Source: Aquilaria yunnanensis (Eukaryota; Streptophyta; Magnoliopsida; Malvales; Thymelaeaceae). Taken from it: a DNA stretch of 64,000 bases. The notes beneath the pieces were generated by a model. That model was not told the DNA's origin. It did not search any database and saw nothing but the letters and a program-made list of their open reading frames with translations. Positions 1 through 30,737 of this stretch are shown piece after piece. The position numbers were made by a program, and so were the translations under genes. The DNA is taken from NCBI GenBank assembly GCA_039654915.1, contig CM077599.1, positions 78,708,001 to 78,772,000 on the forward strand, given 5' to 3'. Numbering within the stretch: the first letter of the stretch is position 1; every line of letters begins with the position of its first letter.

Positions 1-265
1 TGACAAAATTGAGAAGTTTCGGAAAAAATTGACAAATTCTAAAAGTTCCAGGAGCATTTGGTAGTTTGTCACATAAAATTTTGAGCCTGCCGACGTTTTT
101 GGCTCAAATTGACAGAAAACGACAAAATTGTCAAAATCAGAAGCTTCAGGAACTTATCCAGAGGCTGAGAGACGTAAAGGACTAAAATTGTCATTTTACC
201 AATTTAATAGATAAGTTTGAAATTTTTTATTAATTTATCCATCAACAGTTCAGCTAAACTTCCTC

Positions 266-273
266 TATAAATA
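266..273 (+). promoter_or_regulatory. LTR core promoter (TATAAATA)
   Basis: TATAAATA follows CTTCCTC and is followed ~25-30 nt later by the likely transcription start near AACACAG (about 295-300), which would mark the U3/R border. The same box is in LTR2, LTR4 and the inverted LTR3. Sequence identity between LTR3 and the other LTRs stops shortly after this point. Confidence 0.7.
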
Positions 274-2047
274 GCCCCCCAAATTTTGTGCTGAACACAG
301 AAAAAAATAGAAAGAAAACTTAGAGCTCCGTTTCAAAAAAAAGATAAAATTACAGCCTTATTCCCTAGCTTATCCTTTCTCTGCCCAGAAAGTCCCAAAA
401 ATTCCTTTTCTTACGATTCGACCATCTTCTTCGTTTGTTTTTTTTCTTTTCTTCCGTTTTCTCTCTCTCTCTCCGTTCACCGTTTTTCTCTCCTCTGCCG
501 CCGTCGTCCGGCCCAGCCACGCCCGCCGTCGTCATCCCGCCGCCGCAGGTAGCTCCCACGCCGTCCCGCCACCGTCCGCTTCCCTTCCCGTCGTGTCCCG
601 TCTCTCCCTCCGCCGCGTCTCTCTCTCCTAGTTCGCCGGCCGCCGCCCCTCGCCTGGCCCGCCGTCACCCCGCCGTCCCTCGCCTGGCCCGCCATCGCCT
701 CGCCGCCCCATTCCTGGGCCACCGTTGCCTCGCCGTCCCTCGCCTGGCGTGCCGTCACCCAGCTCCGCCCCCTTTCCCCCTCGCGCGCGCGCGCGTCCCT
801 GTTTTCTTGTTCTCAGAATTCAAGTTTTAATTTCAAGGGTACAACTCTCATTTAATCCTTCATCTTTTCAATTTCTTTCACTTTGGTCACTAACTTTGTA
901 TTTTATTCTTGCAGAATTAATTACTAACCCTTTTAATTTTTACTTGTTTGTTTATTATTTGTTTATTACTAACCCCCTTTTTTATTGTTGTTATTAACTT
1001 ACTAACAACTAACTTTTAATACTATTATTGTTACTAACCTTTTAATTTTTGCATTATTACTAACTTTTATAATTGTTGTTAACAATTAATTAACTTTTAT
1101 TATTGTTGTTAATTAATTAATTTAATTAACTTGGCTAGCTTTTTATTATTTTTGTTAATTAATTAATTTAATTAATTTGGCTAACTTTTTATTTATTGTT
1201 GTTAATTAATTTAATTAATTTGGCTAACTTTTTATTTATTGTTGTTAATTAATTTAATTAATTTGGCTAACTTTTTATTATTGTTGTTAATTAATTAATT
1301 TAATTAACTTGGCTAACTTTTTACTGTTGTTAATTAATTAATTTAATTAACTTGGCTAACTTTTTATTATTGTTGTTAATTAATTAATTTAATTAACTTG
1401 ACTAACTTTTTATTATTATTGTTTAACAATTAATTTAATTAACTTTGCTAACATTTATTATTATTTTTAAAGTGGATGGCCAAAAAGCCCCACTTTATTA
1501 TTATTAATTTTTTTTTTCTTTATATAATTTTTTTATTTAATTCACCTTTACCCTTTACTAATTAATAAATAAATGAAAATTAAAAGAAGATTATTTTGTA
1601 ATTAATTATTAAGGCTAATAAAAATCATTTTTAAAAAAAGCCAATTATTTTTATTTTTATATACATGTTTTTAATTCTTTAAAGATAACAAAAAGTTAAA
1701 ATTAATTTTAATAGTTATTTTTATCCAGTAAAAATAATAAAAAATAAAAATAAAACCTGTTAAAAAAAATACATGAAAATTAAGACTTTATATTTTACTG
1801 ATTTATTTAAAATATAACTTTTAAATCCACTAAAATAATAAATATTTTTCATTAAACAAGAAAACAAAAAGAAAACTAAAACAAGATAAGAAAAAGATAA
1901 GAAAGACAAGAAAAAGAAAAGAAAAGAAAATAAAAAATAAAAATTTTTTATCTAAAAATTCTATAACAAAAAGAATTACGAATTAGTAATTAAACTAATA
2001 ATTAATTCCATAAAATTAATAATTATATAACTAACAATAAATTAAAT

Positions 2048-2240
2048 TTAATTTCCATATCCGGATGATCCGACAGGATCTACGGTTTGGAAAATATCAA
2101 ACTTTTTAAAATAAATAAATTAAATAAAATTGTTTAAAATTTCACCAAATTCCGTGTCCAAATGACTCGGCAGAGTCCATGGTTCGGAATCAAAATCTTC
2201 CGTGTCCAAATGACTCGGCAGAGTCCATGGTTCGGAAGTA
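2048..2240 (+). repeat. Three ~36-bp dyad-symmetric repeats in the LTR 3' part
   Basis: One unit (about 2058-2092, CCATATCCGGATGATCC...) and two near-identical units (about 2153-2188 and 2201-2237) share the pattern CC-TCC-GACTC-GGCA-GAGTC-GG, with a GACTC/GAGTC stem and outer CCG/CGG pairs. In RNA each would fold as a hairpin. They sit in the transcribed part of the LTR and recur in every LTR of the cluster, including the diverged inverted LTR3 (about 19386-19470 and 20324-20360). A role in 3'-end formation or packaging is possible but unproven. Confidence 0.6.
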
Positions 2241-2514
2241 TAAAATTTCATACAAATTAATTAATTTAAAAATCCACATTTCAACTAATCCAGTTAAAAT
2301 TTCTAATTTTGAAAATTAACTGAGAATTATTTAAAAGCAAAGCAAAACAAACTTAAAATCAACTAAGGTGCCAATTTTTGGGCGTTTTAACAAAGTTGTT
2401 TTAACGTAACCGTACTCCCGATCCCCGAACTCTCGCAGACCAATTTTAAGGTGACCAATCGACCTAAGAAAACTGATTGGTGGCGACTCCCGAAAACCCG
2501 ACGTTGCCACAGCT

Positions 2515-2532
2515 TGGCGACTCCGCTGGGGA
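2515..2532 (+). other. Primer binding site
   Basis: TGGCGACTCCGCTGGGGA begins three bases after the LTR terminal CA. A PBS starting TGG (the complement of tRNA CCA-3') of this form is typical of Tat/Ogre elements, which commonly prime from tRNA-Arg; I did not align it to a tRNA. Near-copies truncated after ACTCCACTGG occur next to LTR4 (35690) and, inverted, next to LTR3 (19097-19111). Confidence 0.85.
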
Positions 2533-3614
2533 CTCCACGTTAGTGAGTCGAGCCTAAAGTTGATTTGTTTTGATTTACTTTGCTTATTATGTGGATTTAT
2601 ATGTTATATTTACTTATTCTAAACATGCATAATGCATTCACAATATGAAGCTCTATACCCGAGCTTCCTTAAATTAAACACGATTCTTTCTAAGCGGAAT
2701 TGGTGTTGCTGTCCTTGTGAGGCCACGGTCTCCAAGCCTTCACCGGTTTCAAAGTAGCAAAGTAGTGTATTGCCTTCTGAGACGGTTAGTCTCTGCATGG
2801 GCCCACGAAAAGCTACGACTCGAATTAATCCATTCCTTACATTAACCCTAGAGGGTAAGGAATCGGGCCGTCACTATGATTTAGTGACGGGATTCGGGAA
2901 CTATCCCTTGCCTTTTTGGTAAGCTACCTTATGCATATAGAACTCCCCACTTAACCATAGAACTGACCATAGAATTTCTACCATTTTACCAACGCCATAA
3001 GCACGTCCTTGTTATGCTATGTTGTTGCTCTACACTTTTATTTTCTTCGTGTCTTATATTTATGGTTTTAATTCATTTTTCCATAATACTTCATGAGTTG
3101 TTAATTGCTATTTAACTTATTAATAACCTTATCTTTCTTGTGCAATTATTCTTCATGCATCAAAACCACGCATCAAATTATGCTAACTTTTTGGTCTTTA
3201 TAATGACAACTAAAAGTTTTGAAGTTCTACGATAATGGATAAGCAAACTCATTCATTGCATGCATTCCATTACATTAATCACGTGCATATAAAGTCTGAT
3301 AAAAATAATCTCATTGCATGCATTCCATTACATTAATCACGTGCATATAAAGTCTGATAAAAACATAATCTCACTTTATATTGCATGCATCCATTACATC
3401 AATCACACGCATATAAAATCTGATAAAAATAATCTCATTGCATGCATTCCATTACATCAATCACGTGCATATAAATTTTGATAAAAACATAATCTCATTG
3501 CATGCATCCATCACATCAATCATATACGCATAGAATCTAATAAAATAAATATTCCTTTAAAAAGGTAAAATTGGACCTTAACACCGATATTCAACTCGAC
3601 TCCAAACAAGATTA
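2533..3614 (+). other. Retrotransposon leader with stem-loops and ~60-bp tandem repeats
   Basis: There are two perfect stem-loops: a 9-bp stem ATTCCTTAC/GTAAGGAAT (2832-2840 with 2855-2863) and a 7-bp stem CCGTCAC/GTGACGG (2868-2874 with 2884-2890). From about 3240 to 3545, roughly five ~60-bp units contain CATTGCATGCAT, CATTACATTAATCA, CGTGCATATAAA and CTGATAAAAA. Leaders of retroelements commonly hold packaging or dimerisation structures; that role is inferred here. No ORF of note precedes gag. Confidence 0.6.
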
Positions 3615-8300: not shown

Positions 8301-9091
8301 TAAAGAGATTCAATGATAGTCCAAGAAGGCCATCACAAAGAGGATCCAGTAAAACAAAGACATAAAGAACTAGATCCAAAAAAAAAAAAAAAAAGCCATT
8401 AGTTACACATGCTCTGCATTCATGCATTTCATATCATGCATACATAGCCTTTACATAACAAGGACCAAACGGGAAGCACATCTACGGCACAGCTACAGCA
8501 ATATAAGCTGAGATCTCAATGTCATCAGCTCTTACCAATCTATCACTGGATACACAGCTAATATGCGGGACCAACCCGCATCAGGAATTCAAGAATAAAG
8601 TAGACAATATTGTCAAAAGCTTGGCTACCGATTCAATAATCGAGGCTACACCTGGAAGGATCGGATTGACACCAGCTAGTAGTATCCAAGATAAGAGATA
8701 GCTATAGCCAAGGATAAGGCAGATATCAAAAAAAAATATAAAGTAGACAATATTGTCAAAAGCTTGGCAATTGATTCAATAATCGAGGCTACACCTGGAA
8801 GGACAGGATTGATGCCAGCTTAGCAGCATCCAAGATAAGAGATAGCTGTGGTCAAAGATAAGGCAGACATCAAGAAATATTGTCGTTGAAACTTTGTCAA
8901 AAGCGGACAATGGATTCAATAATCGAGGACTGGATCAACGGATAAAAAAAAAATATCTATCAAAATGAAGTAGGATCTACTTTTCCGGTTAAACGGCGGA
9001 TACGGTACTCCGTGACTCTCAAGTCGGTTCTCTCAGTTGCCCATAATAACTGATTCCTTCACCCCTTCTTTCTTTTACTTCCTCCTAGAAA
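5367..9091 (+). other. Non-coding region where pol is missing: repeats, A-rich tracts, upstream region of NABP1
   Basis: After the out-of-frame gag remnant (to ~5508) no protease, RT or integrase remains. Tandem repeats of ~170 bp lie at ~6180-6660 (units with CACAAACTCC, AAGTTCATCCCTTCC, GCCACTTGA). An almost pure A tract lies at ~6700-6860. Four to five ~145-bp units lie at ~7030-7640 (CTGCTCACGAGTAGTATTAA, AAAGACTATCATTGTGA). Three ~135-bp units lie at ~8595-8930 (AGACAATATTGTCAAAAGC, ATTCAATAATCGAGGCTACA). From ~7660 onward the sequence is collinear with 26310-27401 of copy B, the 3' flank of pol. The short open frames are not convincing genes. Confidence 0.65.
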
Positions 9092-9640
9092 ATGGATCCT
9101 ACTTTTTCCACCTTGCGAAAGTATTTCCCTTCTCTTCCAATGAACATCCTCAAAAAGATCTACCAAGTTCGCTGTGAACGATTAAGAGTTCTGATGCACA
9201 AAGGAATCCCTGAAGATGTGCGGTGGTTAATCGAAGCCAAGGTTCGTCTAGCAGGTGAAATCCCAGAGGCATTTGTGTCTCACATGCCTGGTATAGGCAA
9301 AAGCTCTTATGCCAAAAAGCGAAGAGCGAAAAGGTTACAAGTCTGCCATAAATGTGGACGGTGGACTTGTAATACTAAATGTCGTTCTTTAGGGATGATC
9401 TCTGATAATCGAGAAGATAAAATACGATTCATTAAGAATGGCTTGAGTAAAGACTCGTTGGATGATATCCAATTGACTCTTGAGACGCATTCTTGTGGAT
9501 CTGTGCAACGTGAACTACTTGGTTTGTAGAGCATTTTTCATGAAAAACGAGAACGATACAGTCCCGGGAATCTGACGTTAAACGACCCTATTTGTCAGCT
9601 TGTAAGAAAACTGGATGGGAAGCAAATCCTCGACTCATAG
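9092..9640 (+). pseudogene. NABP1-A: carlavirus-type nucleic-acid-binding protein homologue, truncated by a nonsense codon
   Basis: The frame starts at ATG 9092 (MDPTFSTLRKYFPSLP) and stops at TAG 9527-9529 after 145 aa. The orthologous copy-B gene has TGG at this position. The remaining frame then stays open to 9640 and ends LDGKQ-ILDS like its paralogues, so a single G-to-A change cuts off the last ~37 residues. The kept part has the family core: GKSSYAKKRRAKRL, then CHKCGRWTCNTKC (CX2CX4CX3C), then FIKNG. The core motif is intact, so a truncated protein could still bind nucleic acid. This is the first of three tandem paralogues ahead of LOG. No clear TATAAAT box precedes it, unlike the next two genes. 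Confidence 0.8.
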
Positions 9641-9799
9641 AAGCCATTAATCCCGTTACTGGACGTAAAACCAGTGGAAGATGTGAGCCACAGTCACAAT
9701 CACTGTACATACAATTTATCATATTTAAAATTTTCCATTTTTCTTTTAATAATGTATTTGCTCCCGTAAGTGTAATCGACACGTTATCCATTTCATCGC

Positions 9800-9806
9800 T
9801 ATAAAT
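9800..9806 (+). promoter_or_regulatory. TATAAAT box upstream of NABP2-A
   Basis: The context is TTTCATCGCTATAAATGCAT, 81 nt before the NABP2 ATG and followed by a pyrimidine-rich leader. The same block (TTCATC-n-CTATAAAT) recurs before NABP3 and LOG in both copies. Confidence 0.6.
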
Positions 9807-9886
9807 GCATGTTCTTCCAGTCGGTTATCTAAGTTTCCTTCAATAACTAATTCCTTTCCATCATCTCTCAAATTCTTCTCTCATCA

Positions 9887-10435
9887 ATGGATTCTACTCT
9901 TTCAGCACTGCGAAAATACTTTCCTTCCCTTCCAATAAAAGTCCTTAAAAAGATCTACCTTGCTAGATGTGAAAGAATCAGAGTTTTTACACGCAAAGGC
10001 ATTCCCGATAATGTGCAGTGGATAATTGAAGCTAAGGTCCGTCTGGCGGGTGAAGTTCCAGATGCATTTATGCCCCGCATGCCCGGTTTAGGTAAAAGCC
10101 GTTATGCCAAAAGGCGAAGAGCAAAGAGACTAGGCGTGTGTTATAAATGTGGGCGATGGAATTGTAATACTAAATGTCGCTCTTTAGGATACATCTCCAC
10201 AAATCGTGAAGATAAAAGAAAATTCATTAAGAATGGCCTGCGTAAGGAATCTCTGGAAGATATCCGAGAGACTCTTGAAACGCATTCTTGTGGAAAAGTG
10301 CAAGGTCAAATTGTCAAATTGTGGAGGACTTACCATAAAGAACGAGACCGTTACAGTCTTGGGAATGTGACTGTAAACGACCCTGTCTGCCAGCTTGTAA
10401 GAAAACTGGATAGGAAGCAAGTCCTCGACTCATAG
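9887..10435 (+). CDS. NABP2-A: virus-like cysteine-rich nucleic-acid-binding protein
   Basis: This is a complete 182-aa frame from ATG 9887. The N-terminal ~70 residues are helical and basic (LRKYFPSLP, VLKKIYLARCERIRVF, KGIPDNVQWIIEAKVRLAGEVP). Next are GLGKSRYAKRRRAKRLG (an Arg/Lys run like a nuclear localisation signal) and CYKCGRWNCNTKC (CX2CX4CX3C, a likely zinc site), then REDKRKFIKNGL, ETHSCG and a conserved tail ending NDPVCQLVRKLDRKQ. The order GxPxDV...G(S)xYAxxRRAKxxGxCxxC...FIxxG is the signature I recognise from carlavirus cysteine-rich NABPs (Pfam Carla_C4/viral NABP type). Those viral proteins bind RNA/DNA, enter the nucleus and can suppress silencing or act as transcription regulators. 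Function here is inferred from family. It could alternatively be a plant family from which the viral gene derives. Confidence 0.78.
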   Translation: MDSTLSALRKYFPSLPIKVLKKIYLARCERIRVFTRKGIPDNVQWIIEAKVRLAGEVPDAFMPRMPGLGKSRYAKRRRAKRLGVCYKCGRWNCNTKCRSLGYISTNREDKRKFIKNGLRKESLEDIRETLETHSCGKVQGQIVKLWRTYHKERDRYSLGNVTVNDPVCQLVRKLDRKQVLDS

Positions 10436-10585
10436 AAGGCATTGAAGCCATTACTAGATATAAATCAGTGGAAGATGAGAGCCACAGTCATGATTGCTGT
10501 ACATATAAGCTGTCATTTGTCTTTTCTTTTGACAATAATGTACTTGCTTCTGTAAGTGTAATTAACGCATTATCCCTTTCATCAC

Positions 10586-10592
10586 TATAAAT
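10586..10592 (+). promoter_or_regulatory. TATAAAT box upstream of NABP3-A
   Basis: The context is CCCTTTCATCACTATAAATA, 60 nt before the ATG. The flanking block is the same as before NABP2, showing that gene and promoter were duplicated together. Confidence 0.6.
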
Positions 10593-10651
10593 ATGTGTTA
10601 GTTATTTTCGTTTCCTACAATCACTAATTTCTTTCTTTGCCTCCTTCATCA

Positions 10652-11200
10652 ATGGAGTCTTCTCTTTCCGCCCTACGAAAGTATTTTCCTTCCTTCCCAA
10701 TAAATATTCTTAAAAAGATTTATCAAGCTAGATGTGAACGATTCAGAGTATTTATGCACAAAGGCATTCCTGATAATGTGCGGTGGCTAATTGAAGCTAA
10801 GGTTCGTTCAGCTGGTGAAGTTCCCGAAGCGTTCTTTCCCCGTATGCCCGGCTTTGGTAAAAGCGCTTATGCCAAAAAAAGAAGAGCAAAGAGGCTAGGC
10901 GTTTGTCATAATTGTGGATGGTGGATTTGCGGCAATAAATGTCGTGCTCCAGGAGTGATCACCAGAAATCGTAATGATAGAATAAGATTCATTAAGAATG
11001 GCTTGCGTAAGGAATCTCTAGAAGATATTCGAGAGGTTCTTGAAGCGCATTCTTGCGGAATAGTGCAATTTGAGGTTGTTGGATTATGGATAATTTTCCA
11101 AAAAGAACGAGATCGTTACAGTCTTGGGAATCTGACCCTAAACGACCCTGTTTGCCAGTTTGTGAGAAAGCTAGATGAGATGCAAATCACCGATTCATAG
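10652..11200 (+). CDS. NABP3-A: virus-like cysteine-rich nucleic-acid-binding protein
   Basis: The frame is 182 aa from ATG 10652 (MESSLSALRKYFPSFP). The five codons before it are open but contain no ATG in this copy (TTG at 10637). The domain order matches NABP2: basic helical N-terminus, GFGKSAYAKKRRAKRLG, then CHNCGWWICGNKC (CX2CX4CX3C), NDRIRFIKNGL, EAHSCG, and an NDPVCQFVRKLDEMQ tail. Compared with NABP1/2 the zinc loop has GWW in place of GRW, so the paralogues have diverged at the probable binding surface while keeping all four cysteines. A fragment of this gene, with copy-A bases, is fused in frame to pol at 23115-23308. Confidence 0.78.
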   Translation: MESSLSALRKYFPSFPINILKKIYQARCERFRVFMHKGIPDNVRWLIEAKVRSAGEVPEAFFPRMPGFGKSAYAKKRRAKRLGVCHNCGWWICGNKCRAPGVITRNRNDRIRFIKNGLRKESLEDIREVLEAHSCGIVQFEVVGLWIIFQKERDRYSLGNLTLNDPVCQFVRKLDEMQITDS

Positions 11201-11214
11201 AAAGCATTGAAGCC

Positions 11215-11700
11215 ATTACTGGACGCAAAGCCAGTGGAAGACGAGGATCAAAGTCACGATTACTGTACGTGCTAGCTGTCGCTTTTGAAATTTTCCTCCC
11301 CTTTTGGTAATAATGTATCCACTCCTGACGTGAACCAAAGTCACGATTACTGTACGTACTAGCTGTCGCTTTTGAAATTTTCCTCCCCTTTCAGCGATAA
11401 TGTATCCACTCCTGACATGAGCCATAGTTACGATTACTGTACGTGCTAGCTGTCGCTTTTGAAATTATCCTCCCAATAATGTACCCACTCCTGACACGGA
11501 CTACTGTATATAGCTGCCACTTTTGAAATTTTCCTTCACTTCCGGCAATCACGTACCTACTCCTGACATAAGTTACAATCGCGACTACTGTATATTTTAG
11601 TTGCTTTTGAAAATTTCCTCCTCTTTTAACGATAGTGTACCCATACCTGACCAGAGTCATACTCGTGACTACTATGAATAGCTGGCAATAATGTATCCAT
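11215..11700 (+). repeat. ~97-bp tandem repeats upstream of LOG-A
   Basis: About five degenerate units carry GATTACTGTACGTGCTAGCT, GTCGCTTTTGAAATTTTCCT, AATAATGTATCCACTCCTGA, then a variable trinucleotide. The unit is a duplicated form of the spacer that precedes NABP2 and NABP3 (compare about 10485-10560). Some units read CTGACGTGAAC and so contain a TGACG core, which bZIP/TGA factors bind in plant and viral promoters. They lie directly before the LOG TATA box, which suggests an amplified upstream activating region. The open frames running through them are repeat artefacts. Confidence 0.65.
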
Positions 11701-11738
11701 TCTTGAAAAATAAAATTATTGCCTTATCTCTTCATCTC

Positions 11739-11745
11739 TATAAAT
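11739..11745 (+). promoter_or_regulatory. TATAAAT box upstream of LOG-A
   Basis: The context is TCTTCATCTCTATAAATATA, 40 nt before ATG 11779. The TTCATC-n-CTATAAAT layout matches the boxes before NABP2 and NABP3. Its position argues for ATG 11779 as the true start, because the upstream in-frame extension (to 11719) would contain the TATA box. Confidence 0.62.
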
Positions 11746-11778
11746 ATATCCTCTTTTCTCACAAGGGTAAGGATAGGA

Positions 11779-12408
11779 ATGGAGAAAACCTCAACTCGTA
11801 AATCCCGAACTATTTGTGTATTTTCTGGGGCTTTTCCTGGAAAAGATGAAGAGTATTTAAAAGCAGCCAACCATTTGGGAAGAGTATTAGCTGAGCGAAA
11901 AATACATTTAGTTTATGGAGGAGGTAGTGTCGGATTAATGGGAGGTGTAGCATCAGCAGCATCTCTAGGAGGAAGTCAAGTTCTGGGTATTATCCCTGGA
12001 CCTCTGAAATTTATTTCTGGGGGCACGATTGGAGAAGAATTAGTGGTTAAAAATTTGCAAGAGCGTGTGTTACAAATGCTTTTAAATGCTGATGCTTTTA
12101 TCGCTCTACCAGGTGGTTTTGGCACATTGGGAGAAGTCTTTCAAATTGCTTCCATGGCCCAACTTAATTTGCATAAAAAACCCATTGGGCTTTTGAATGT
12201 TAACAATTTCTTTACAGGTCTGATAGCTTTTATGGATTATGCTATGCAGAAGAATTTCATATCAAGAGTGGCACGGCGAATCATAATATCCGCAACAACT
12301 GCTGAAGAATTGCTAGATAAAATACAAGCTTTTGTTCCTGAACCAGATCCAGCAATGATTCAGATAGACTGGACACGACAGTCTTTCCCGACCAGTTCAC
12401 TCCCATAA
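11779..12408 (+). CDS. LOG-like: LOG-type cytokinin riboside 5'-monophosphate phosphoribohydrolase (copy A)
   Basis: The protein is 209 aa from MEKTSTRKSR. LOG enzymes cleave cytokinin nucleotides to the active free base plus ribose 5-phosphate. Visible motifs in order: ICVFSGAFPGKDEEY (nucleotide-binding N-terminus), LVYGGGSVGLMGGVA, VLGIIPGPL, NLQERVLQM, ADAFIALPGGFGTLGE, KPIGLLNVNNFF, and FISRVARRIIISATTAEEL. PGGFGTLGE fits the family motif PGGxGTxxE with its catalytic Glu, and the Arg of the canonical MHxRK segment is kept (QER). The flanking residues differ from ordinary plant LOGs (MHxRK is replaced by LQERV; GGG-S-VGLMG is normal), so it is a divergent member. There is no intron, unlike plant LOG genes. 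It lies last in the cargo block with its own TATA box. Activity is likely but inferred. Confidence 0.85.
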   Translation: MEKTSTRKSRTICVFSGAFPGKDEEYLKAANHLGRVLAERKIHLVYGGGSVGLMGGVASAASLGGSQVLGIIPGPLKFISGGTIGEELVVKNLQERVLQMLLNADAFIALPGGFGTLGEVFQIASMAQLNLHKKPIGLLNVNNFFTGLIAFMDYAMQKNFISRVARRIIISATTAEELLDKIQAFVPEPDPAMIQIDWTRQSFPTSSLP

Positions 12409-12925: not shown

Positions 12926-14640
12926 GAGGTCCTAAGGAAAGCTCCTTAGCCTCACAATCAATTTTCATCATCGGGGTTTTAAGGATGGAACCTTTGCCTC
13001 GAAAATAATCAATTTTCATCATCGGGGTTTTAAGGATGGAACCTTTGCCTCGAAAACAATCAATTTTCATCATCGGGGTTTTAAGGATGGAACCTTTGCC
13101 TCGAAAATAATCAATTTTCATCATCGGGGTTTTAAGGATGGAACCTTTGCCTCGAAAATAATCAATTTTCATCATCGGGGTTTTAAGGATGGAACCTTTG
13201 CCTCGAAAATAATCAATTTTCATCATCGGGGTTTTAAGGATGGAACCTTTGCCTCGAAAACAATCAATTTTCATCATCGGGGTTTTAAGGATGGAACCTT
13301 TGCCTCGAAAATAATCAATTTTCATCATCGGGGTTTTAAGGATGGAACCTTTGCCTCGAAAATAATCAATTTTCATCATCAGGGTTTTAAGGATGGAACC
13401 TTTGCCTCGAAAACAATCAATTTTCATCGGGGTTGTAAGGATGGAACCTTTGCCTCGAAAATAATCAATTTTCATCATCAGGGTTTTAAGGATGGAACCT
13501 TTGCCTTGAAAAGAATCAATTTTCATCATCGGGGTTTTAAGGATGGAACCTTTGCCTCGAAAACAATCAATTTTCATCATCGGGGTTTTAAGGATGGAAC
13601 CTTTGCCTCGAAAACAATCAATTTTCATCGGGGTTGTAAGGATGGAACCTTTGCCTCGAAAATAATCAATTTTCATCATCAGGGTTTTAAGGATGGAACC
13701 TTTGCCTTGAAAATAATCAATTTTCATCATCGGGGTTTTAAGGATGGAACCTTTGCCTCGAAAACAATCAATTTTCATCGGGGTTGTAAGGATGGAACCT
13801 TTGCCTCGAAAATAATCAATTTTCATCATCAGGGTTTTAAGGATGGAACCTTTGCCTTGAAAAGAATCAATTTTCATCATCGGGGTTTTAAGGATGGAAC
13901 CTTTGCCTCGAAAACAATCAATTATCAATCCGAGGTTTTAAGGATGGAACCTTTGCCTCGAGATCAATCAATCAATTCGAGGTTTTAAGGATGGAACCTT
14001 TGCCTCGAGATCAATCAATCAATCCGAGGTTTTAAGGATAGAACCTTTGCCTCGAGATCAATCAATCAATCCGGGGTTTTAAGGATGGAACCTTTGCCTC
14101 GAGATCAATCAATCAATCCGAGGTTTTAAGGATAGAACCTTTGCCTCGAGATCAATCAATCAATCCGGGGTTTTAAGGATGGAACCTTTGCCTCGAGATC
14201 AATTATCAATCCGAGGTTTTAAGGATGGAACCTTTGCCTCGACATCAATCAATCAATTCGAGGTTTTAAGGATAGAACCTTTGCCTCGACATCAATCAAT
14301 CAATCCGGGGTTTTAAGGATGGAACCTTTGCCTCGAGATCAATCAATCAATCCGAGGTTTTAAGGATGGAACCTTTGCCTCGAAAACAAATAATCAATCA
14401 ATCAGTCCATCTTACAACGATAGGAGCTTTCCTATCGTTAGAGGTTCTAAGGACATTTCCTTAACCTAAAACAAACAATCAATCCATCAGTCCATCTTAC
14501 AACGATAGGAGCTTTCCTATCGTTAGAGGTTCTAAGGACCTTTCCTTAACCTCAAACAAATAATCAATCAATCAGTCCATCTTACAACAATAGGAGCTTT
14601 CCTATCGTTAGAGGTTTTAAGGACCTTTCCTTAAACCTTA
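12926..14640 (+). repeat. Hairpin-repeat array A
   Basis: The array has three successive zones. First is a single strong hairpin, GAGG-tc-CTAAGG/CCTTAG-CCTC (12926-12953). Second are ~19 units of 51 (some 48) bp and ~10 units of ~47 bp, each containing CGAGG/CGGGG, AAGG, ATGGAA, CCTT and CCTCG. In RNA the two halves pair, and CGGGG keeps pairing with CCUCG by one G-U. Third, near 14410-14640, are three compound units with CGATAGGA-GCTT-TCCTATCG and AGGTT...AACCT stems. The array lies between LOG and the polypurine tract in both copies. Because 51 and 48 are multiples of 3, long frames (342 aa on -, 160 aa on +) stay open by chance; I do not call them genes. Confidence 0.85.
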
Positions 14641-14731: not shown

Positions 14732-14744
14732 AAAGGGGGGCAGC
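14732..14744 (+). other. Polypurine tract of copy A
   Basis: AAAGGGGGGCAGC lies directly before the LTR start TGTTGACACCC, in the position of the plus-strand primer. It is identical in copy B (32922-32934) and present inverted at 22071-22083. Confidence 0.8.
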
Positions 14745-17438
14745 TGTTGACACCCAATTTCGTCCGGGTGTTTTAAAATTTTGAAAAAAATTTTATTAAA
14801 AAAAATTAATTTAAAAAAAAAAATATATATATATTACTATTATTATTAAAAAAAATTTAATTAGTTTAAAATATATTTTTGTTTTGTGAAAATTTGATTT
14901 AAAATGATATATGTGTGAATATGTGTATGTTTGAAATAAAATAAAATTTCATGAAAAAAATGACAAAAAATTAAAAGTTTGAGGTAAAAATGACAAAATT
15001 GAGAAGTTTCGGAAAAAATTGACAAATTCTAAAAGTTCCAGGAGCATTTGGTAGTTTGTCACATAAAATTTTGAGCCTGCCGACGTTTTTGGCTCAAATT
15101 GACAGAAAACGACAAAATTGTCAAAATCAGAAGCTTCAGGAACTTATCCAGAGGCTGAGAGACGTAAAGGACTAAAATTGTCATTTTACCAATTTAATAG
15201 ATAAGTTTGAAATTTTTTATTAATTTATCCATCAACAGTTCAGCTAAACTTCCTCTATAAATAGCCCCCCAAATTTTGTGCTGAACACAGAAAAAAATAG
15301 AAAGAAAACTTAGAGCTCCGTTTCAAAAAAAAGATAAAATTACAGCCTTATTCCCTAGCTTATCCTTTCTCTGCCCAGAAAGTCCCAAAAATTCCTTTTC
15401 TTACGATTCGACCATCTTCTTCGTTTGTTTTTTTTCTTTTCTTCCGTTTTCTCTCTCTCTCTCCGTTCACCGTTTTTCTCTCCTCTGCCGCCGTCGTCCG
15501 GCCCAGCCACGCCCGCCGTCGTCATCCCGCCGCCGCAGGTAGCTCCCACGCCGTCCCGCCACCGTCCGCTTCCCTTCCCGTCGTGTCCCGTCTCTCCCTC
15601 CGCCGCGTCTCTCTCTCCTAGTTCGCCGGCCGCCGCCCCTCGCCTGGCCCGCCGTCACCCCGCCGTCCCTCGCCTGGCCCGCCATCGCCTCGCCGCCCCA
15701 TTCCTGGGCCACCGTTGCCTCGCCGTCCCTCGCCTGGCGTGCCGTCACCCAGCTCCGCCCCCTTTCCCCCTCGCGCGCGCGCGCGTCCCTGTTTTCTTGT
15801 TCTCAGAATTCAAGTTTTAATTTCAAGGGTACAACTCTCATTTAATCCTTCATCTTTTCAATTTCTTTCACTTTGGTCACTAACTTTGTATTTTATTCTT
15901 GCAGAATTAATTACTAACCCTTTTAATTTTTACTTGTTTGTTTATTATTTGTTTATTACTAACCCCCTTTTTTATTGTTGTTATTAACTTACTAACAACT
16001 AACTTTTAATACTATTATTGTTACTAACCTTTTAATTTTTGCATTATTACTAACTTTTATAATTGTTGTTAACAATTAATTAACTTTTATTATTGTTGTT
16101 AATTAATTAATTTAATTAACTTGGCTAGCTTTTTATTATTTTTGTTAATTAATTAATTTAATTAATTTGGCTAACTTTTTATTTATTGTTGTTAATTAAT
16201 TTAATTAATTTGGCTAACTTTTTATTTATTGTTGTTAATTAATTTAATTAATTTGGCTAACTTTTTATTATTGTTGTTAATTAATTAATTTAATTAACTT
16301 GGCTAACTTTTTACTGTTGTTAATTAATTAATTTAATTAACTTGGCTAACTTTTTATTATTGTTGTTAATTAATTAATTTAATTAACTTGACTAACTTTT
16401 TATTATTATTGTTTAACAATTAATTTAATTAACTTTGCTAACATTTATTATTATTTTTAAAGTGGATGGCCAAAAAGCCCCACTTTATTATTATTAATTT
16501 TTTTTTTCTTTATATAATTTTTTTATTTAATTCACCTTTACCCTTTACTAATTAATAAATAAATGAAAATTAAAAGAAGATTATTTTGTAATTAATTATT
16601 AAGGCTAATAAAAATCATTTTTAAAAAAAAGCCAATTATTTTTATTTTTATATACATGTTTTTAATTCTTTAAAGATAACAAAAAGTTAAAATTAATTTT
16701 AATAGTTATTTTTATCCAGTAAAAATAATAAAAAATAAAAATAAAACCTGTTAAAAAAAATACATGAAAATTAAGACTTTATATTTTACTGATTTATTTA
16801 AAATATAACTTTTAAATCCACTAAAATAATAAATATTTTTCATTAAACAAGAAAACAAAAAGAAAACTAAAACAAGATAAGAAAAAGATAAGAAAGACAA
16901 GAAAAAGAAAAGAAAAGAAAATAAAAAATAAAAATTTTTTATCTAAAAATTCTATAACAAAAAGAATTACGAATTAGTAATTAAACTAATAATTAATTCC
17001 ATAAAATTAATAATTATATAACTAACAATAAATTAAATTTAATTTCCATATCCGGATGATCCGACAGGATCTACGGTTTGGAAAATATCAAACTTTTTAA
17101 AATAAATAAATTAAATAAAATTGTTTAAAATTTCACCAAATTCCGTGTCCAAATGACTCGGCAGAGTCCATGGTTCGGAATCAAAATCTTCCGTGTCCAA
17201 ATGACTCGGCAGAGTCCATGGTTCGGAAGTATAAAATTTCATACAAATTAATTAATTTAAAAATCCACATTTCAACTAATCCAGTTAAAATTTCTAATTT
17301 TGAAAATTAACTGAGAATTATTTAAAAGCAAAGCAAAACAAACTTAAAATCAACTAAGGTGCCAATTTTTGGGCGTTTTAACAAAGTTGTTTTAACGTAA
17401 CCGTACTCCCGATCCCCGAACTCTCGCAGACCAATTTT
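14745..17438 (+). repeat. LTR2, 3' LTR of copy A, 3' truncated
   Basis: It begins TGTTGACACCC after the polypurine tract and matches LTR1 from 14991 onward. It lacks the last ~75 bases of the LTR (those after CAGACCAATTTT) and joins LOG sequence at a shared TTTT (17435-17438). No target-site duplication or PBS follows, so this is a rearrangement joint and not an insertion end. Confidence 0.9.
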
Positions 17439-23308: not shown

Positions 23309-26035
23309 ATCTTCTACTATAAGGTGATGCCTTTCGGGTTAAAGAATGCTGGTGCTACATATCAAAGAGCCATGGTCACGTTGTTCCATGACATGATGCA
23401 TAAAGAAATTGAAGTATATGTGGATGACATGATTGCCAAAACTTTCACTGCTGGGGGGCATCTAAAAGTGCTAAGAAAACTATTCGATAGACTTCGCAAA
23501 TATCAATTGAAGTTGAATCCTGCCAAATGTACTTTTGGAGCCTCTTCAGGAAAGTTATTGGGTTTCATAGTCAGCAAGGACGGGATTCGAGTTGACCCGA
23601 GTAAAGTCAAAGCGATACAAGAAATGCAACCCCCGAAGACTCCAAAACAAGTAAGAAGTTTTCTGGGTAGAATCAACTTCATAGCAAGGTTCATATCACA
23701 ATTGACGTCCAAGTGTGAACCGCTTTTCAAATCACTAAAGAAGAACAATCCGATTGAGTGGAATAACGAATGCCAAGAAGCGTTCGAGAAAATCAAACGA
23801 TATCTATCAAATCCACCAGTCTTGATACCACCTCGATCCGGAGAACCGTTGATTCTATATTTATCCATACAGGATTCTTCATTAGGATCCGTATTGGGTC
23901 AACGTGATGAGACAAGCAAGAAGGAGCATGCAATTTACTATTTGAGCAAAAAGCTTACCACATATGAAGCTAAATACTCAATAGTAGAAAAGTCCTGTTG
24001 TGCCCTTGCATGGGTAGCACATCGACTACGACACTACATGCTCAACAACACAACATTACTGATCTCCAAGACTGACCCCATTAAGTACATTTTCGAGAAA
24101 CCCGCTTTATCAGGCAGGATTGCAAAATGGCAAATGCTGTTATCTGAATACGACATACAGTATGTCACCCAAAAGGCCGTAAAAGGAAGTGTGATCGCTG
24201 AATATCTGGCTGATAGAGCATTAGAGGATTATGAGCCCATGAGAATGGACTTTCCTGATGGAGATATAATGACGATAGAACAGGAAGTCGATGAAGAAAA
24301 TGAAACATGGAAAATGGCATTCGATGGAGCATCTAATGCTTTGGGACAAGGGATCGGAGCTATACTCATCTCTCCAAGCGGAGAGCAGTTTCCCCTCACA
24401 GCAAAAATTACATTTCCTTGTACCAACAATATAGTAGAGTATGAAGCATGTGCTATGGGACTCCAAATGGCATTGGATTTGAAAGTGCGAGATCTCCGAG
24501 TCTATGGGGATTCCGCATTAGTCATATATCAAATCAATGGAGAATGGGAGACAAGAGATTCAAAATTGATCCCTTACCAAAAGCTCATACTAAACTTGGC
24601 TCGAAAATTCAACAGTATAAGCTTCCATCATCTTCCAAGGGAAGATAATCAAATACCGGATGCTTTAGCTACTTTGGCTGTTATGTACAAGATCAGTGAC
24701 CCCGAGCATACTCCTATATTCGAGATGAGAATAATAGATTCTCCAGCTTATTGCATGAGCATCGAAGAAGAATTGGATGGAAAGCCTTGGTATCACGATA
24801 TCAAGAAATACCTCCAAGAAAGAGTATATCCACCAGAAGTATCAGAAAATGACAAGAAATTTCTACGAAGATTGTCAATGGGTTTTCTTTTAAACCTAGA
24901 CATACTTTACAAGAAAACCCCAGACTCGATGCTACTTCGCTGTGTAGATACTCATGAAGCACGAAAGATCATGGAAGAAGTTCATTCTGGAATATGTGGA
25001 GCACACACTAGTGGTCATACTATGGCAAGACAAATAATGAGGGCTGGTTACTATTGGCTCACATTGGAAAGTGATTGCGTCAATCACGTAAGAAAATGTC
25101 ACAAATGCCAAATATATGCCAACAAGATCCAAGCTCCACCTGTTCCTCTTAATGTAACAGCAATACCTTGGCCTTTTGCCATGTGGGGAATCGATGTTAT
25201 TGGAGCGATTACCCCTAAAGCTTCCAATGGTCACAAATTCATCCTAGTTGCAATTGACTACTTTACTAAATGGGTAGAAGCTGTGTCTTATGCAAGCGTA
25301 ACTCAAAAGGTGGTATGCCGGTTCATTAAGAAAGAAATCATTTGTCGCTATGGACCGCCAGAGTGTATCATCTCAGACAATGCCACGAACCTGAATAATG
25401 CAATGATGCAGACTTTGTGCCGGCAATTCAAAATCAAGCATCTCAATTCAGCACCTTATCGACCGATGATGAATGGTGCAGTAGAAGCGGCCAATAAAAA
25501 TATCAAGAGAATTGTTGAAAAGATGATCGTCACTTACAAGGACTGGCATGAGATGTTACCTTTTGCACTGCATGCTTATAGAACTTCTACCCGTACTTCT
25601 ACTGGAGCAACACCTTTTTCTCTGGTATACGGTATGGAGGCTGTATTGCCTATCGAAGTTGAAATTCCTTCATTAAGGGTACTAATGGATACTCAATTAG
25701 GAGAAGCAGAATGGGTCAAAGCTAGATACGAGCAATTAAATCTAATTGATGAAAGAAGAATGATAGCCCTCTGCCATGGGCAACTTTATCAAAGAAGGAT
25801 GATTCGTGCTTACAACAAAAAGGTTCGCCCACGACAATTTCACGAAGGTGACATAGTGCTCAAGAAAATTTTACCCATGCAACATGATTCAAGAGGAAAA
25901 TGGACACCAAATTATGACGGGCCATATGTCGTGAAGAAAGCATTTTCAGGAGGGGCACTAATTCTGACAGAAATGGATGGACGAGAATTACCGAAGCCAG
26001 TAAATTCGGATGCAGTAAAGAAATACTTTGCATAA
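23309..26035 (+). CDS. pol: pol: RT (5' truncated) - RNase H - archaeal-like RNase H - integrase
   Basis: About 908 pol residues lie in an open frame that begins upstream inside repeat and NABP3 sequence. RT enters at FYYKVMPFGLKNAGATYQ and keeps VYVDDMIAK with its two catalytic Asp residues; protease and the RT N-terminus are missing. RT-linked RNase H follows (LILYLSIQDSSLGSVL, YEAKYSIVEKSCCALAW). A second RNase H has MAFDGASNALGQGIGAIL, NNIVEYEACAMGL, VYGDSALVIYQ and HLPREDNQIPDALA, the extra archaeal-like domain typical of Tat elements. Integrase has an HHCC zinc site (HSG...H...CHKCQ), WGIDVIG, IISDNATN and GAVEAANK as the D-D-E triad, and a C-terminal chromatin-proximal part ending ELPKPVNSDAVKKYF. 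There are no internal stops in this stretch, so the gene was active recently. The usual initiating gag-pro part is absent. Confidence 0.9.
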   Translation: MFYYKVMPFGLKNAGATYQRAMVTLFHDMMHKEIEVYVDDMIAKTFTAGGHLKVLRKLFDRLRKYQLKLNPAKCTFGASSGKLLGFIVSKDGIRVDPSKVKAIQEMQPPKTPKQVRSFLGRINFIARFISQLTSKCEPLFKSLKKNNPIEWNNECQEAFEKIKRYLSNPPVLIPPRSGEPLILYLSIQDSSLGSVLGQRDETSKKEHAIYYLSKKLTTYEAKYSIVEKSCCALAWVAHRLRHYMLNNTTLLISKTDPIKYIFEKPALSGRIAKWQMLLSEYDIQYVTQKAVKGSVIAEYLADRALEDYEPMRMDFPDGDIMTIEQEVDEENETWKMAFDGASNALGQGIGAILISPSGEQFPLTAKITFPCTNNIVEYEACAMGLQMALDLKVRDLRVYGDSALVIYQINGEWETRDSKLIPYQKLILNLARKFNSISFHHLPREDNQIPDALATLAVMYKISDPEHTPIFEMRIIDSPAYCMSIEEELDGKPWYHDIKKYLQERVYPPEVSENDKKFLRRLSMGFLLNLDILYKKTPDSMLLRCVDTHEARKIMEEVHSGICGAHTSGHTMARQIMRAGYYWLTLESDCVNHVRKCHKCQIYANKIQAPPVPLNVTAIPWPFAMWGIDVIGAITPKASNGHKFILVAIDYFTKWVEAVSYASVTQKVVCRFIKKEIICRYGPPECIISDNATNLNNAMMQTLCRQFKIKHLNSAPYRPMMNGAVEAANKNIKRIVEKMIVTYKDWHEMLPFALHAYRTSTRTSTGATPFSLVYGMEAVLPIEVEIPSLRVLMDTQLGEAEWVKARYEQLNLIDERRMIALCHGQLYQRRMIRAYNKKVRPRQFHEGDIVLKKILPMQHDSRGKWTPNYDGPYVVKKAFSGGALILTEMDGRELPKPVNSDAVKKYFA

Positions 26036-28119: not shown

Positions 28120-28239
28120 GCGTGTTCTTCCTTCTGATTAAACAACAGATAAGATACCCCGTGACTTCTAAAGTCGATTATTCCAGTTTCCTGCAATAAC
28201 TGATTCATTTCCCTCTTCTCTCAAATTCTTCTCTCATCA

Positions 28240-28788
28240 ATGGATTCTACTCTTTCTGTACTGCGAAAATACTTTCCTTCCCTCCCACTAAAAGTCCTTA
28301 AAAAGATCTACCTTGCTAGATGTGAAAGAATCAGAGTTTTTACACGCAAAGGCATTCCCGATAATGTGCAGTGGATAATTGAAGCTAAGGTCCGTTTGGC
28401 GGGTGAAGTTCCAGATGCATTTATGCCCCGCATGCCCGGTTTAGGTAAAAGCCGTTATGCCAAAAGGCGAAGAGCAAAGAGACTAGGCGTGTGTTATAAA
28501 TGTGGGCGATGGAATTGTAATACTAAATGTCGCTCTTTAGGATACGTCTCCATAAATCGTGAAGATAAAAGAAAATTCATTAAGAATGGCCTGCGTAAGG
28601 AGTCTCTGAAAGATATCCGAGAGACTCTTGAAACGCATTCTTGTGGAAAAGTGCAAGGTGAAATTATCGGTTTATGGAGGACTTACCATAAAGAACGAAA
28701 CCGTTACAGTCTTGGGAATGTGATTTTAAACGACCCCGTTTGTCAGTTTGTAAGAAAACTAGATGGGAAGCAAATCCCCGACTTATAG
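28240..28788 (+). CDS. NABP2-B: virus-like cysteine-rich nucleic-acid-binding protein
   Basis: 182 aa from ATG 28240, nearly the same as NABP2-A: GLGKSRYAKRRRAKRLG, CYKCGRWNCNTKC, REDKRKFIKNGL and the conserved tail. All four cysteines and the basic run are intact. It sits between NABP1-B and NABP3-B in the same order and orientation as copy A, about 290 bp after NABP1-B. Confidence 0.78.
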   Translation: MDSTLSVLRKYFPSLPLKVLKKIYLARCERIRVFTRKGIPDNVQWIIEAKVRLAGEVPDAFMPRMPGLGKSRYAKRRRAKRLGVCYKCGRWNCNTKCRSLGYVSINREDKRKFIKNGLRKESLKDIRETLETHSCGKVQGEIIGLWRTYHKERNRYSLGNVILNDPVCQFVRKLDGKQIPDL

Positions 28789-29052: not shown

Positions 29053-29601
29053 ATGGAGCCTTCTCTTTCCGCTCTACGAAAATATTTCCCTTCCTTCCCA
29101 ATAAATGTTCTTAAAAAGATTTATCAAGCTAGATGTGAACGATTCAGAATATTTATGCACAAAGGCATTCCTGATAATGTGCGGTGGCTAATTGAAGCTA
29201 AGGTTCGTTCAGCTGGTGAAGTTCCAGAAGCGTTCTTTCCCCGTATGCCCGGCTTTGGTAAAAGCGCTTATGCCAAAAAAAGAAGAGCAAAGAGGCTAGG
29301 CGTTTGTCATAATTGTGGATGGTGGATTTGCGGCAATAAATGTCGTTCTCCAGGAGTGATCACCAGAAATCGTAATGATAGAATAAGATTCATTAAGAAT
29401 GGCTTGTGTAAGGAATCTCTAGAAGATATTCGAGAGGTTCTTGAAGCGCATTCTTGCGGAATAGTGCAATTTGAGGTTGTTGGATTATGGATAATTTTCC
29501 AAAAAGAACGAGATCGTTACAGTCTTGGGAATCTGACCCTAAACGACCCTGTTTGCCAGTTTGTGAGAAAGCTAGATGAGATGCAAATCACCGATTCATA
29601 G
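29053..29601 (+). CDS. NABP3-B: virus-like cysteine-rich nucleic-acid-binding protein
   Basis: 182 aa from ATG 29053 (MEPSLSALRKYFPSFP). An in-frame ATG lies 15 nt upstream (29038), but copy A lacks it and paralogues start at the equivalent of 29053. The motif set is GFGKSAYAKKRRAKRLG, CHNCGWWICGNKC and RIRFIKNGL. One change, Arg to Cys in NGLCKESLED, distinguishes it from copy A. The tail NDPVCQFVRKLDEMQITDS is identical to copy A. Confidence 0.78.
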   Translation: MEPSLSALRKYFPSFPINVLKKIYQARCERFRIFMHKGIPDNVRWLIEAKVRSAGEVPEAFFPRMPGFGKSAYAKKRRAKRLGVCHNCGWWICGNKCRSPGVITRNRNDRIRFIKNGLCKESLEDIREVLEAHSCGIVQFEVVGLWIIFQKERDRYSLGNLTLNDPVCQFVRKLDEMQITDS

Positions 29602-30107: not shown

Positions 30108-30737
30108 ATGGAGAAAAGCCCAACTCGTAAATCCCGAAGTATTTGTGTATTTTCTGGGGCTTTTCCTGGAAAAGATGAAGAGTATTTAAAAGCAGCCAAC
30201 CATTTGGGTAGAGTATTAGCTGAGCGAAAAATACATTTAGTTTATGGAGGAGGTAGTGTCGGATTAATGGGAGGTGTAGCATCAGCAGCATCTCTAGGAG
30301 GAAGTCAAGTTTTGGGCATTATCCCTGGACCTCTGAAATTTATTTCTGGGGGCACGATTGGAGAAGAATTAGTGGTTAAAAATTTGCAAGAGCGTGTGTT
30401 ACAAATGCTTTTAAATGCTGATGCTTTTATCGCTCTACCAGGTGGTTTTGGCACATTGGGAGAAGTCTTTCAAATTGCTTCCATGGCCCAACTTAATTTG
30501 CATAAGAAACCCATTGGGCTTTTAAATGTTAACAATTTCTTTACAGGTCTGATAGCTTTTATGGATTATGCTATGCAGAAGAATTTCATATCAAGAGTGG
30601 CACGACGAATCATAATATCCGCAACAACTGCTGAAGAATTGCTAGATAAAATACAAGCTTTTGTTCCTGAACCAGATCCAGCAATGATTCAGATAGACTG
30701 GACACGACAGTCTTTCCCGACCAGTTCACTCCCATAA
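30108..30737 (+). CDS. LOG-like: LOG-type cytokinin riboside 5'-monophosphate phosphoribohydrolase (copy B)
   Basis: 209 aa from ATG 30108 (MEKSPTRKSRSICVFSG). An upstream ATG at 30021 is in frame but lies before the TATA box, so it is unlikely to be used. The protein is almost identical to copy A, with visible differences confined to the first ~15 residues, while several third-position changes occur along the gene. YGGGSVGLMGG, the Arg of LQERV and PGGFGTLGE are all present. It lies ~500 bp after NABP3-B, behind the 97-bp repeats, and just before the hairpin array. The conserved intact frame in both copies suggests retained function; substitution-rate testing would be decisive. Confidence 0.85.
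   Translation: MEKSPTRKSRSICVFSGAFPGKDEEYLKAANHLGRVLAERKIHLVYGGGSVGLMGGVASAASLGGSQVLGIIPGPLKFISGGTIGEELVVKNLQERVLQMLLNADAFIALPGGFGTLGEVFQIASMAQLNLHKKPIGLLNVNNFFTGLIAFMDYAMQKNFISRVARRIIISATTAEELLDKIQAFVPEPDPAMIQIDWTRQSFPTSSLP

What the first reader, a model, noticed from the sequence alone, without database searches (positions are those of the whole stretch)
9092..12408. Retrotransposon cargo block: three virus-like NABP genes plus a cytokinin-activating LOG gene
Seen: the same four genes in the same order and strand occur twice (9092-12408 and 27402-30737), inside elements with gag or pol, PPT and LTRs. Family knowledge: LOG releases active cytokinin, and carlavirus-type NABPs bind nucleic acids, with some members acting as silencing suppressors or as transcription regulators that promote cell enlargement or division. 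Inference: the element may carry a module that counters silencing and pushes host cells toward division, which would favour its own amplification. I know of no LTR retrotransposon described with this cargo.
Basis: partly seen in the sequence, partly recalled or inferred. Interest (0 to 1): 0.96.

Follow-up and report, generated by a model that had tools for sequence, protein, structure and literature searches.

The report
Jumping genes carrying virus-like and hormone-enzyme genes
A high-copy family of plant retrotransposons with very young copies carries one to three virus-type nucleic-acid-binding genes and a LOG-type enzyme gene that evolve under selection; they likely help the element evade host silencing, and the enzyme, whose pocket is altered, likely no longer makes ordinary cytokinin.

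Summary
Two blocks of three NABP genes plus LOG lie inside rearranged LTR elements. In the window's own 842 Mb genome, 20 of 20 sampled LOG loci have 1-3 NABP genes upstream on the same strand. Of 5 copies examined, both outer LTR ends were located in 4; all 4 have a perfect 5-bp target duplication and no LTR mismatch where compared. One also has gag, G-patch, RT, two RNases H and integrase; 16 of 20 sampled copies lack pol. All four cargo genes show purifying selection (median omega 0.22-0.33). NABP-LOG adjacency recurs in Citrus and Rhamnella gene models. LOG-type domains in Gypsy elements were already in print (PMC9289625); my paper searches did not find the NABP-LOG block. The cytokinin step is weakened: LOG keeps its catalytic Arg and Glu but differs at adenine- and prenyl-pocket residues. 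Best reading: NABPs likely blunt silencing of element RNA, LOG likely acts on another nucleotide. Anatomy is near certain; mechanism is inferred.

The parts
1..2511 (+). 5' LTR of copy A (first 246 bp lie outside the window; full length 2757 bp by comparison with the 3' LTR)
   Evidence: 2447 of 2448 columns identical to 14991-17438; LTR end GTTGCCACA at 2511
2515..2533 (+). primer-binding-site-like sequence, 3 bases after the LTR; tRNA not identified
   Evidence: sequence; same or one-base-variant motif after LTR ends in L009, L013, L027, L037, L038
3582..5366 (+). gag of copy A, one open frame of 594 codons
   Evidence: PF03732 46 bits
9092..9529 (+). NABP1 copy A, cut short by a stop (145 aa)
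   Evidence: PF05515 32.1 bits, PF01623 27 bits
9887..10435 (+). NABP2 copy A (182 aa)
   Evidence: PF05515 34.2 bits; 113 homologues
10652..11200 (+). NABP3 copy A (182 aa)
   Evidence: PF05515 27.3 bits
11779..12408 (+). LOG-type gene copy A (209 aa), no intron
   Evidence: PF03641 106 bits; model pLDDT 84.6, best match Arabidopsis 2a33
12941..14400 (+). 51-bp and 47-bp tandem repeats between LOG and 3' LTR (approximate ends)
14732..14740 (+). polypurine tract before the 3' LTR
   Evidence: sequence
14745..17438 (+). 3' LTR of copy A (TGTTGACACCC start), cut at a junction to a second LOG 3' end
23318..26035 (+). pol of copy B: RT (partial), RNase H, second RNase H (RVT_3), integrase; fused upstream to an NABP3 fragment (23115-23308)
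   Evidence: PF00078, PF17917, PF13456, PF17921, PF00665
27402..27950 (+). NABP1 copy B (182 aa)
28240..28788 (+). NABP2 copy B
29053..29601 (+). NABP3 copy B
30108..30737 (+). LOG-type gene copy B, 98.6% identical to copy A
32935..35686 (+). LTR after copy B
10585..10593 (+). TATA-like CTATAAATA upstream of NABP3 A; CTATAAAT also upstream of NABP2 and LOG in both copies and of NABP3 B, and inside the LTRs; no clear box before NABP1
   Evidence: CTATAAATA 9 times in the window against 1.5 expected, a count raised by the duplicated LTRs and blocks

Best explanation
This is a high-copy family of Ty3/gypsy LTR retrotransposons (Tat-type by its second RNase H) that carries, between pol and the 3' LTR, one to three virus-type NABP genes and an intronless LOG-type gene, and the proteins are predicted to work as an accessory module in which the NABPs would bind element-derived RNA and blunt host silencing while LOG would act on a nucleotide other than the usual cytokinin precursor. 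Shown: dispersed copies, LTR pairs, 5-bp target duplications, conserved gene order, purifying selection on all four genes, a conserved basic-plus-Cys motif in NABP, and a LOG with catalytic Arg and Glu kept and base-pocket residues replaced (fold from a confident predicted model). Inferred: a separate promoter for NABP2, NABP3 and LOG (from TATA-like boxes), the silencing step (from kinship with carlavirus and vitivirus NABPs), and the changed LOG substrate (from pocket residues). 16 of 20 sampled copies lack pol yet keep the cargo, which suggests that the cargo matters in cis or in the cell where the element is expressed, whereas pol can be borrowed.
For: Linkage: 20 of 20 sampled LOG loci on seven contigs have NABP upstream on the same strand (15 with three, 4 with two, 1 with one). 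Element ends: 5-bp duplications ATTAC, TCTTT, CATAT, CAACC at 4 of 4 copies whose two ends were located, of 5 examined. LTR pairs: 398/398, 467/467, 273/273 and 1235/1235 compared bases identical there (parts of each LTR), 2447/2448 columns in the window. Copy number: PF03641 gives 150 of 150 scored matches over cut-off from 3310 loose first-look candidates; PF01623 gives 134 matches among 150 scored from 8935 candidates. Selection: median omega N1 0.22, N2 0.33, N3 0.31, LOG 0.27, all 434 pairs below 1. Polyprotein: G-patch, RT, RNase H, RVT_3, integrase. Kinship of NABP: Pfam; basic-plus-Cys pattern in 137 of 160 homologues; of the 20 best viral fold matches 16 are named nucleic-acid- or RNA-binding protein or silencing suppressor, though none is significant. 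Other plants: NABP-LOG gene models in Citrus and Rhamnella, and NABP and LOG rows with equal contig length and source (4511 and 8723 bases). LOG pocket.
Against: No expression, small-RNA or biochemical data. The NABP model is poor (pLDDT 57.7), and its best viral match has E = 0.16. The NABPs are about 180 aa, while most viral matches have 90-140, so viral descent, direction of transfer and function are not shown. The omega pairs are not independent and use gapless copies only; internal stops occur in 6 of 16 N1, 3 of 18 N2, 1 of 16 N3 and 4 of 19 LOG rows. The A-B pair for NABP2 alone gives 0.51. The sampled loci were among the best-scoring LOG hits, which favours intact copies. Loss of cytokinin activity is only predicted: I know of no mutagenesis in this LOG subfamily, and conserved residues did not predict activity among wheat LOGs (PMC11593424, passages).
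Confidence: 0.45

Rival explanations
1. NABPs serve the element's own replication as RNA chaperones, packaging factors or transcription activators of the LTR, with no role in silencing.
For: Basic-plus-Cys pattern; cargo kept in copies without pol; NABPs duplicated and diverged within this lineage.
Against: gag is matched in 15 of 20 stretches, some only as short fragments; several viral fold matches are named silencing suppressors, without significance.
Confidence: 0.3
2. One reading: LOG makes active cytokinin, pushing host cells towards division and raising element amplification.
For: PF03641 match and LOG fold; catalytic Arg99 and Glu122 equivalents kept in 20 of 20 copies; purifying selection.
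Against: Lys100 is absent in 118 of 124 rows of the LOG set, the 6 exceptions including the two Arabidopsis references. Both window copies read as M96L, H97Q, K100V, E121G, E125Q, W129M against the Corynebacterium enzyme.
Confidence: 0.15
3. Passive passengers: captured genes carried along without benefit.
For: Capture of genes by LTR elements is described in rice and sorghum (PMC3726574, search listing only); some copies have stops.
Against: All 434 pairwise omega values below 1; the NABP-LOG pair recurs in other plants.
Confidence: 0.08
4. Host genes beside unrelated LTRs, or an assembly artefact.
For: The window region is rearranged, with a 1625-bp stretch repeated at 100% identity.
Against: 20 of 20 dispersed loci keep the linkage; target duplications at 4 of 4.
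Confidence: 0.01

Closest known systems
Ty3/gypsy Tat-type elements (Ogre/Retand) with extra ORFs (PMC6317226, PMC11963269)
   Same: Second RNase H between RNase H and integrase, long pol-to-3'LTR region, tandem repeats there
   Different: Domain-bearing extra ORFs of recent Retand elements are antisense, mainly TRP28; these are sense-strand NABP and LOG, and the LTR (2757 bp) is longer than the 315-1194 bp reported there
Gypsy elements with a YgdH (LOG-family) domain in Citrus sinensis, C. clementina and Populus trichocarpa (PMC9289625 section 12), which cites Steinbauerova 2011 (not held; recalled as Athila-like elements with a LOGL4-like ORF)
   Same: LOG-family ORF inside a Gypsy element; Citrus and Populus also give hits here
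   Different: No NABP genes reported with it in the text read; pocket changes and selection not described there
Orchid Gypsy elements with AlkB (PMC9289625)
   Same: Retrotransposon with an RNA-directed accessory domain also found in flexiviruses
   Different: Different domain and host; activity was shown there
Carlavirus, vitivirus and allexivirus NABP (PF01623, PF05515)
   Same: Basic stretch followed by a Cys motif; Pfam matches over cut-off
   Different: Longer protein, chromosomal, one to three copies per element, gag and pol rather than viral genes beside it
Plant LOG cytokinin-activating enzymes
   Same: Predicted fold; PGGxGTxxE motif; catalytic Arg and Glu
   Different: Adenine and prenyl pocket residues replaced; no introns

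Membership tests
LTR retrotransposon | Two LTRs, TG...CA, with 5-bp target duplication | tested here: met
   4 of 4 copies with both ends located, 5 examined
LTR retrotransposon | PBS after the 5' LTR and polypurine tract before the 3' LTR | tested here: met
   tRNA not identified
Ty3/gypsy Tat lineage | Second RNase H between RNase H and integrase (criterion of PMC6317226) | tested here: met
   RVT_3 between RT_RNaseH and integrase domains in both pol copies scanned
Ty3/gypsy Tat lineage | Place in an RT-RH-INT tree | not tested
   no reference set at hand
Retand subclade | Antisense ORF with TRP28 between pol and 3' LTR | tested here: inconclusive
   In 7000-14000 the only antisense ORF over 100 aa lies in tandem repeats; no TRP28 scan was run
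Viral NABP / Carla_C4 | Pfam score above gathering cut-off | tested here: met
   three of three copy-A proteins
Viral NABP / Carla_C4 | Same fold as viral NABP | tested here: inconclusive
   low-confidence model; best hits are viral NABPs but E >= 0.16
Viral NABP / Carla_C4 | Nucleic-acid binding or silencing suppression | not testable with these tools
   needs assay
LOG protein family (PF03641) | Profile score, predicted fold and PGGxGTxxE motif | tested here: met
Cytokinin-activating LOG enzyme | Catalytic Arg and Glu | tested here: met
   kept in 20 of 20 copies and in both window copies
Cytokinin-activating LOG enzyme | Adenine and prenyl pocket (Met96, His97, Lys100, Glu121, Glu125, Trp129 of CgLOG) | tested here: not met
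   all six differ in the window LOG; K100, E125 and W129 equivalents replaced in 20 of 20 copies, E121 in 19 of 20

The most novel reading that the evidence does not exclude
A lineage of plant retrotransposons permanently took over an RNA-virus silencing suppressor and a repurposed LOG enzyme as a counter-defence module, duplicated the suppressor, gave the genes their own promoters, and has kept the pair through the divergence of several eudicot families: a virus-to-transposon transfer of counter-defence.
Probability: 0.35. Interest if true: 0.9.

Novelty: new variant of a known kind. Interest (0 to 1): 0.75.

Why it matters
Extra ORFs in plant Gypsy elements most often lack known domains (PMC9289625, passage), and why elements keep them is open. 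Here two recognisable genes, one virus-type and one enzyme, are kept together in sense orientation, under selection, in a family with very young copies, even in copies that lack pol. That makes a direct test possible of whether retrotransposons carry counter-defence genes as viruses do, and of what a LOG with a remodelled pocket does. It also warns genome annotators: many 'LOG' gene models in plants may be transposon genes (40 of the 120 best hits listed are from Reevesia pubescens alone; their transposon origin is inferred).

Tried and rejected
Viral contigs: 28 stretches matched a pattern, none encodes a relative of NABP. Solved structures by NABP profile: two hits at E 0.69 and 0.88. A search for host LOG genes with an Arabidopsis LOG3 query returned 150 matches that each cover nearly the whole query in one frame (45-48% identity, a few with one stop), so multi-exon host genes did not rank and no host control was obtained. 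An alternative open frame over the NABP 3' end was considered because P0106 and P0112 read it; my frame pick hit the main frame and its stop instead, so this was not tested. A counting search for the PPT-LTR junction did not complete. Ends of a fifth copy (L013) were not found. Assembly collapse and chance neighbourhood were rejected.

Limits: loci were 20 of the first 21 plus-strand LOG hits by score (one near neighbour skipped). The NABP tree used 10 of the 20 loci and part of the homologues (98 rows); the LOG tree used the 120 listed of 7769 hits (126 rows). Omega rows with gaps were dropped and codons with stops skipped. Same-contig pairs in other species rest on equal contig length and source in the protein tables, not on fetched DNA. 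A gag match was counted even when short (30-52 aa in L009, L018, L027).
Full report
Observation. The window holds two blocks of three NABP genes and one LOG gene in the same order and strand. All four copy-A proteins pass Pfam cut-offs. Copies A and B share non-coding DNA upstream of NABP1 (matches within 7696-9100 and 26339-27410), the tandem repeats and the LTR, so they belong to one family. Copy A has gag and no pol match; copy B has pol and no gag match. The 5' and 3' LTRs of copy A agree in 2447 of 2448 columns. The stretch between the blocks is rearranged: an inverted LTR (22070 to 19115), a 1625-bp repeat at 100% identity, and an NABP3 fragment fused to pol.

Genome-wide test. The window lies at G000:C7:78708001-78772000 of an 842 Mb assembly. 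PF03641 gave 3310 loose first-look candidates; 150 were scored and all 150 passed the cut-off. PF01623 gave 8935 candidates, 150 scored, 134 matches. I fetched 10-kb stretches at 20 of the first 21 plus-strand LOG hits. In 20 of 20, NABP genes lie upstream of LOG on the same strand: three in 15, two in 4, one in 1. A gag match lies in 15 of the 20 stretches (only 30-52 aa in three of them), pol in 2, neither in 3. No pol match lies between gag and NABP in the 15, nor between the 5' LTR end and NABP in the 5 stretches that show one (L009, L013, L016, L018, L027). So 16 of 20 copies lack pol and keep the cargo; 2 have pol; for L017 and L021 the stretch does not tell.

Are they real insertions? 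I looked for both outer ends at five copies. Four gave both: duplications ATTAC, TCTTT, CATAT and CAACC, each perfect. The parts of their LTRs that I compared show no mismatch: 398, 467, 273 and 1235 bases, so these insertions are young. Three are 16,782, 17,421 and 18,050 bp long. The fourth spans 23,301 bp (C4:50044699-50067999) and carries gag (its frame interrupted by a stop), a G-patch domain, RT, RNase H, a second RNase H, integrase, three NABPs and LOG. The fifth copy's (L013) ends were not found.

Lineage. A second RNase H between RNase H and integrase marks the angiosperm Tat clades Ogre and Retand (PMC6317226, section 13 and passages read). Both pol copies scanned have it. I could not place them in a reference tree. 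The LTR of 2757 bp is longer than the 315-1194 bp of recent Retand elements, whose domain-bearing extra ORFs are antisense (PMC11963269, abstract, part 1 of section 11 and passages read).

Selection. Copies A and B give omega 0.13 (NABP1), 0.51 (NABP2), 0.35 (NABP3), 0.15 (LOG); the three NABPs against each other give 0.18-0.32 at dS 0.52-1.02. Across gapless copies from the 20 loci plus one window copy, medians are 0.22, 0.33, 0.31 and 0.27, and all 434 pairs with dS between 0.05 and 1 lie below 1. Internal stops occur in 6 of 16, 3 of 18, 1 of 16 and 4 of 19 rows. The pairs are not independent. I infer that the genes worked for most of the family's history, while single copies decay.

NABP. 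A single-sequence search gave 113 hits, named ones from plants (Xanthoceras, Acer, Rhamnella, Orobanche, Parasponia, Citrus), most from unnamed contigs; a profile search gave 331, best 120 shown. A basic run followed by a Cys pattern is present in 137 of 160. In a quick tree of 98 rows the genome's own NABPs group with P0001 and P0002 (SH-aLRT 93), so the triplication happened within this lineage; NABP1 splits from NABP2/3. The structure model is weak (pLDDT 57.7). Its viral fold matches are not significant (best E 0.16), yet of the best 20, 16 are named nucleic-acid- or RNA-binding proteins or silencing suppressors, one a 15-kDa protein and three have no name. That agrees with the Pfam result but does not prove descent.

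LOG. The model is good (pLDDT 84.6) and closest to Arabidopsis 2a33. Against the Corynebacterium enzyme (PMC4979012, section 6 and passages read) both window copies keep catalytic Arg99 and Glu122 but differ at Met96, His97, Lys100, Glu121, Glu125 and Trp129. In the 20 genome copies Arg99 and Glu122 are kept in all, while Lys100, Glu125 and Trp129 are replaced in all and Glu121 in 19. In 124 rows of relatives Lys100 is present in 6: two Arabidopsis proteins, three Xanthoceras models and P0181 (the six by residue pair, P0181 and P0188 named from notes). A tree puts the two Arabidopsis and three Xanthoceras rows apart from the other 121, with P0181 branching first among those; the NABP-linked LOGs of Citrus and Rhamnella (long branches, place unsure) and of the two shared-length contigs lie among the rest, as does the window's. 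101 of 120 hits end in an LxLxL tail, a pattern I recall as the EAR repression motif; the LOGs of the window and the 20 loci lack it. Against my reading: wheat LOGs that share the critical residues differ in activity (PMC11593424, passages), so residues alone do not settle function.

Spread. Gene models P0078 (Rhamnella rubrinervis) and P0106 (Citrus) join NABP to LOG in the same order; P0064 joins an integrase end to NABP and P0092 a protease to NABP, the last two labels being my reading of the sequence. NABP P0011 and LOG P0168 share a contig length of 4511 and source; NABP P0012 and LOG P0135 share 8723. So the pairing is not private to this genome. Whether it goes back to one old capture is open.

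Control of expression. CTATAAAT lies upstream of NABP2, NABP3 and LOG in both copies. CTATAAATA occurs 9 times in the window against 1.5 expected, a count raised by the duplicated LTRs and blocks, and also sits in the LTRs. NABP1 lacks a clear box. I infer separate promoters; no transcript data were available.

Prior art. A YgdH (LOG-family) domain in Gypsy consensus sequences of two Citrus species and Populus is in print (PMC9289625, section 12 and passages read), citing Steinbauerova 2011, which is not held and which I recall as reporting LOGL4-like ORFs in Athila-like elements. A review and a survey of extra ORFs mention no NABP or LOG cargo in the passages searched (PMC7264820; PMC11963269). 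Paper searches for the NABP Pfam names and for combinations with LOG or endogenous viral elements listed no report of the NABP-LOG block (PMC13308828 by term). Subscription papers are mostly not covered, and capped listings were read only as far as shown.

Verdict. Anatomy and element nature are firm. The novelty is the conserved NABP-LOG module, not the presence of a LOG alone. The mechanism is inferred: NABPs as RNA binders that blunt silencing, LOG as a nucleotide-handling protein with a changed pocket.

Noticed in passing
window 17435-23104: Junctions typical of template switching or of misassembly: a 1625-bp stretch identical to 12330-13954, an inverted LTR (19115-22070), an NABP3 fragment joined to pol near a shared MPFGLKNA motif.
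   Followed up: partly
NABP stop codons, e.g. 10433-10435, and loci L009-L028: In the examples printed, in-frame sequence after NABP1 and NABP3 stops still looks protein-like (KPLxPLLDVKPVEDVSHSHNHC); Orobanche P0103 reads Trp at this place and continues similarly. Possible readthrough or a lost C-terminus.
   Followed up: partly
LOG homologues P0114-P0233: 101 of 120 end in an LxLxL tail, often after basic residues; absent in the window's LOGs and the 20 sampled ones.
   Followed up: partly
Reevesia pubescens LOG hits: 40 of the 120 best LOG hits are Reevesia gene models on many scaffolds, forming one clade of 40 rows: an amplified, probably transposon-borne set; no Reevesia NABP was among the rows listed.
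   Followed up: no
window 35793-36713: A Ty1/copia-like pol remnant is interrupted by the start of an inverted LTR of this family (my reading of the sequence).
   Followed up: no
L040:1561-4188: G-patch domain in the polyprotein upstream of RT, a domain reported before in Gypsy elements of several plants (PMC9289625).
   Followed up: no
window 7026-7448: A 124-bp tandem repeat between gag and the cargo of copy A.
   Followed up: no
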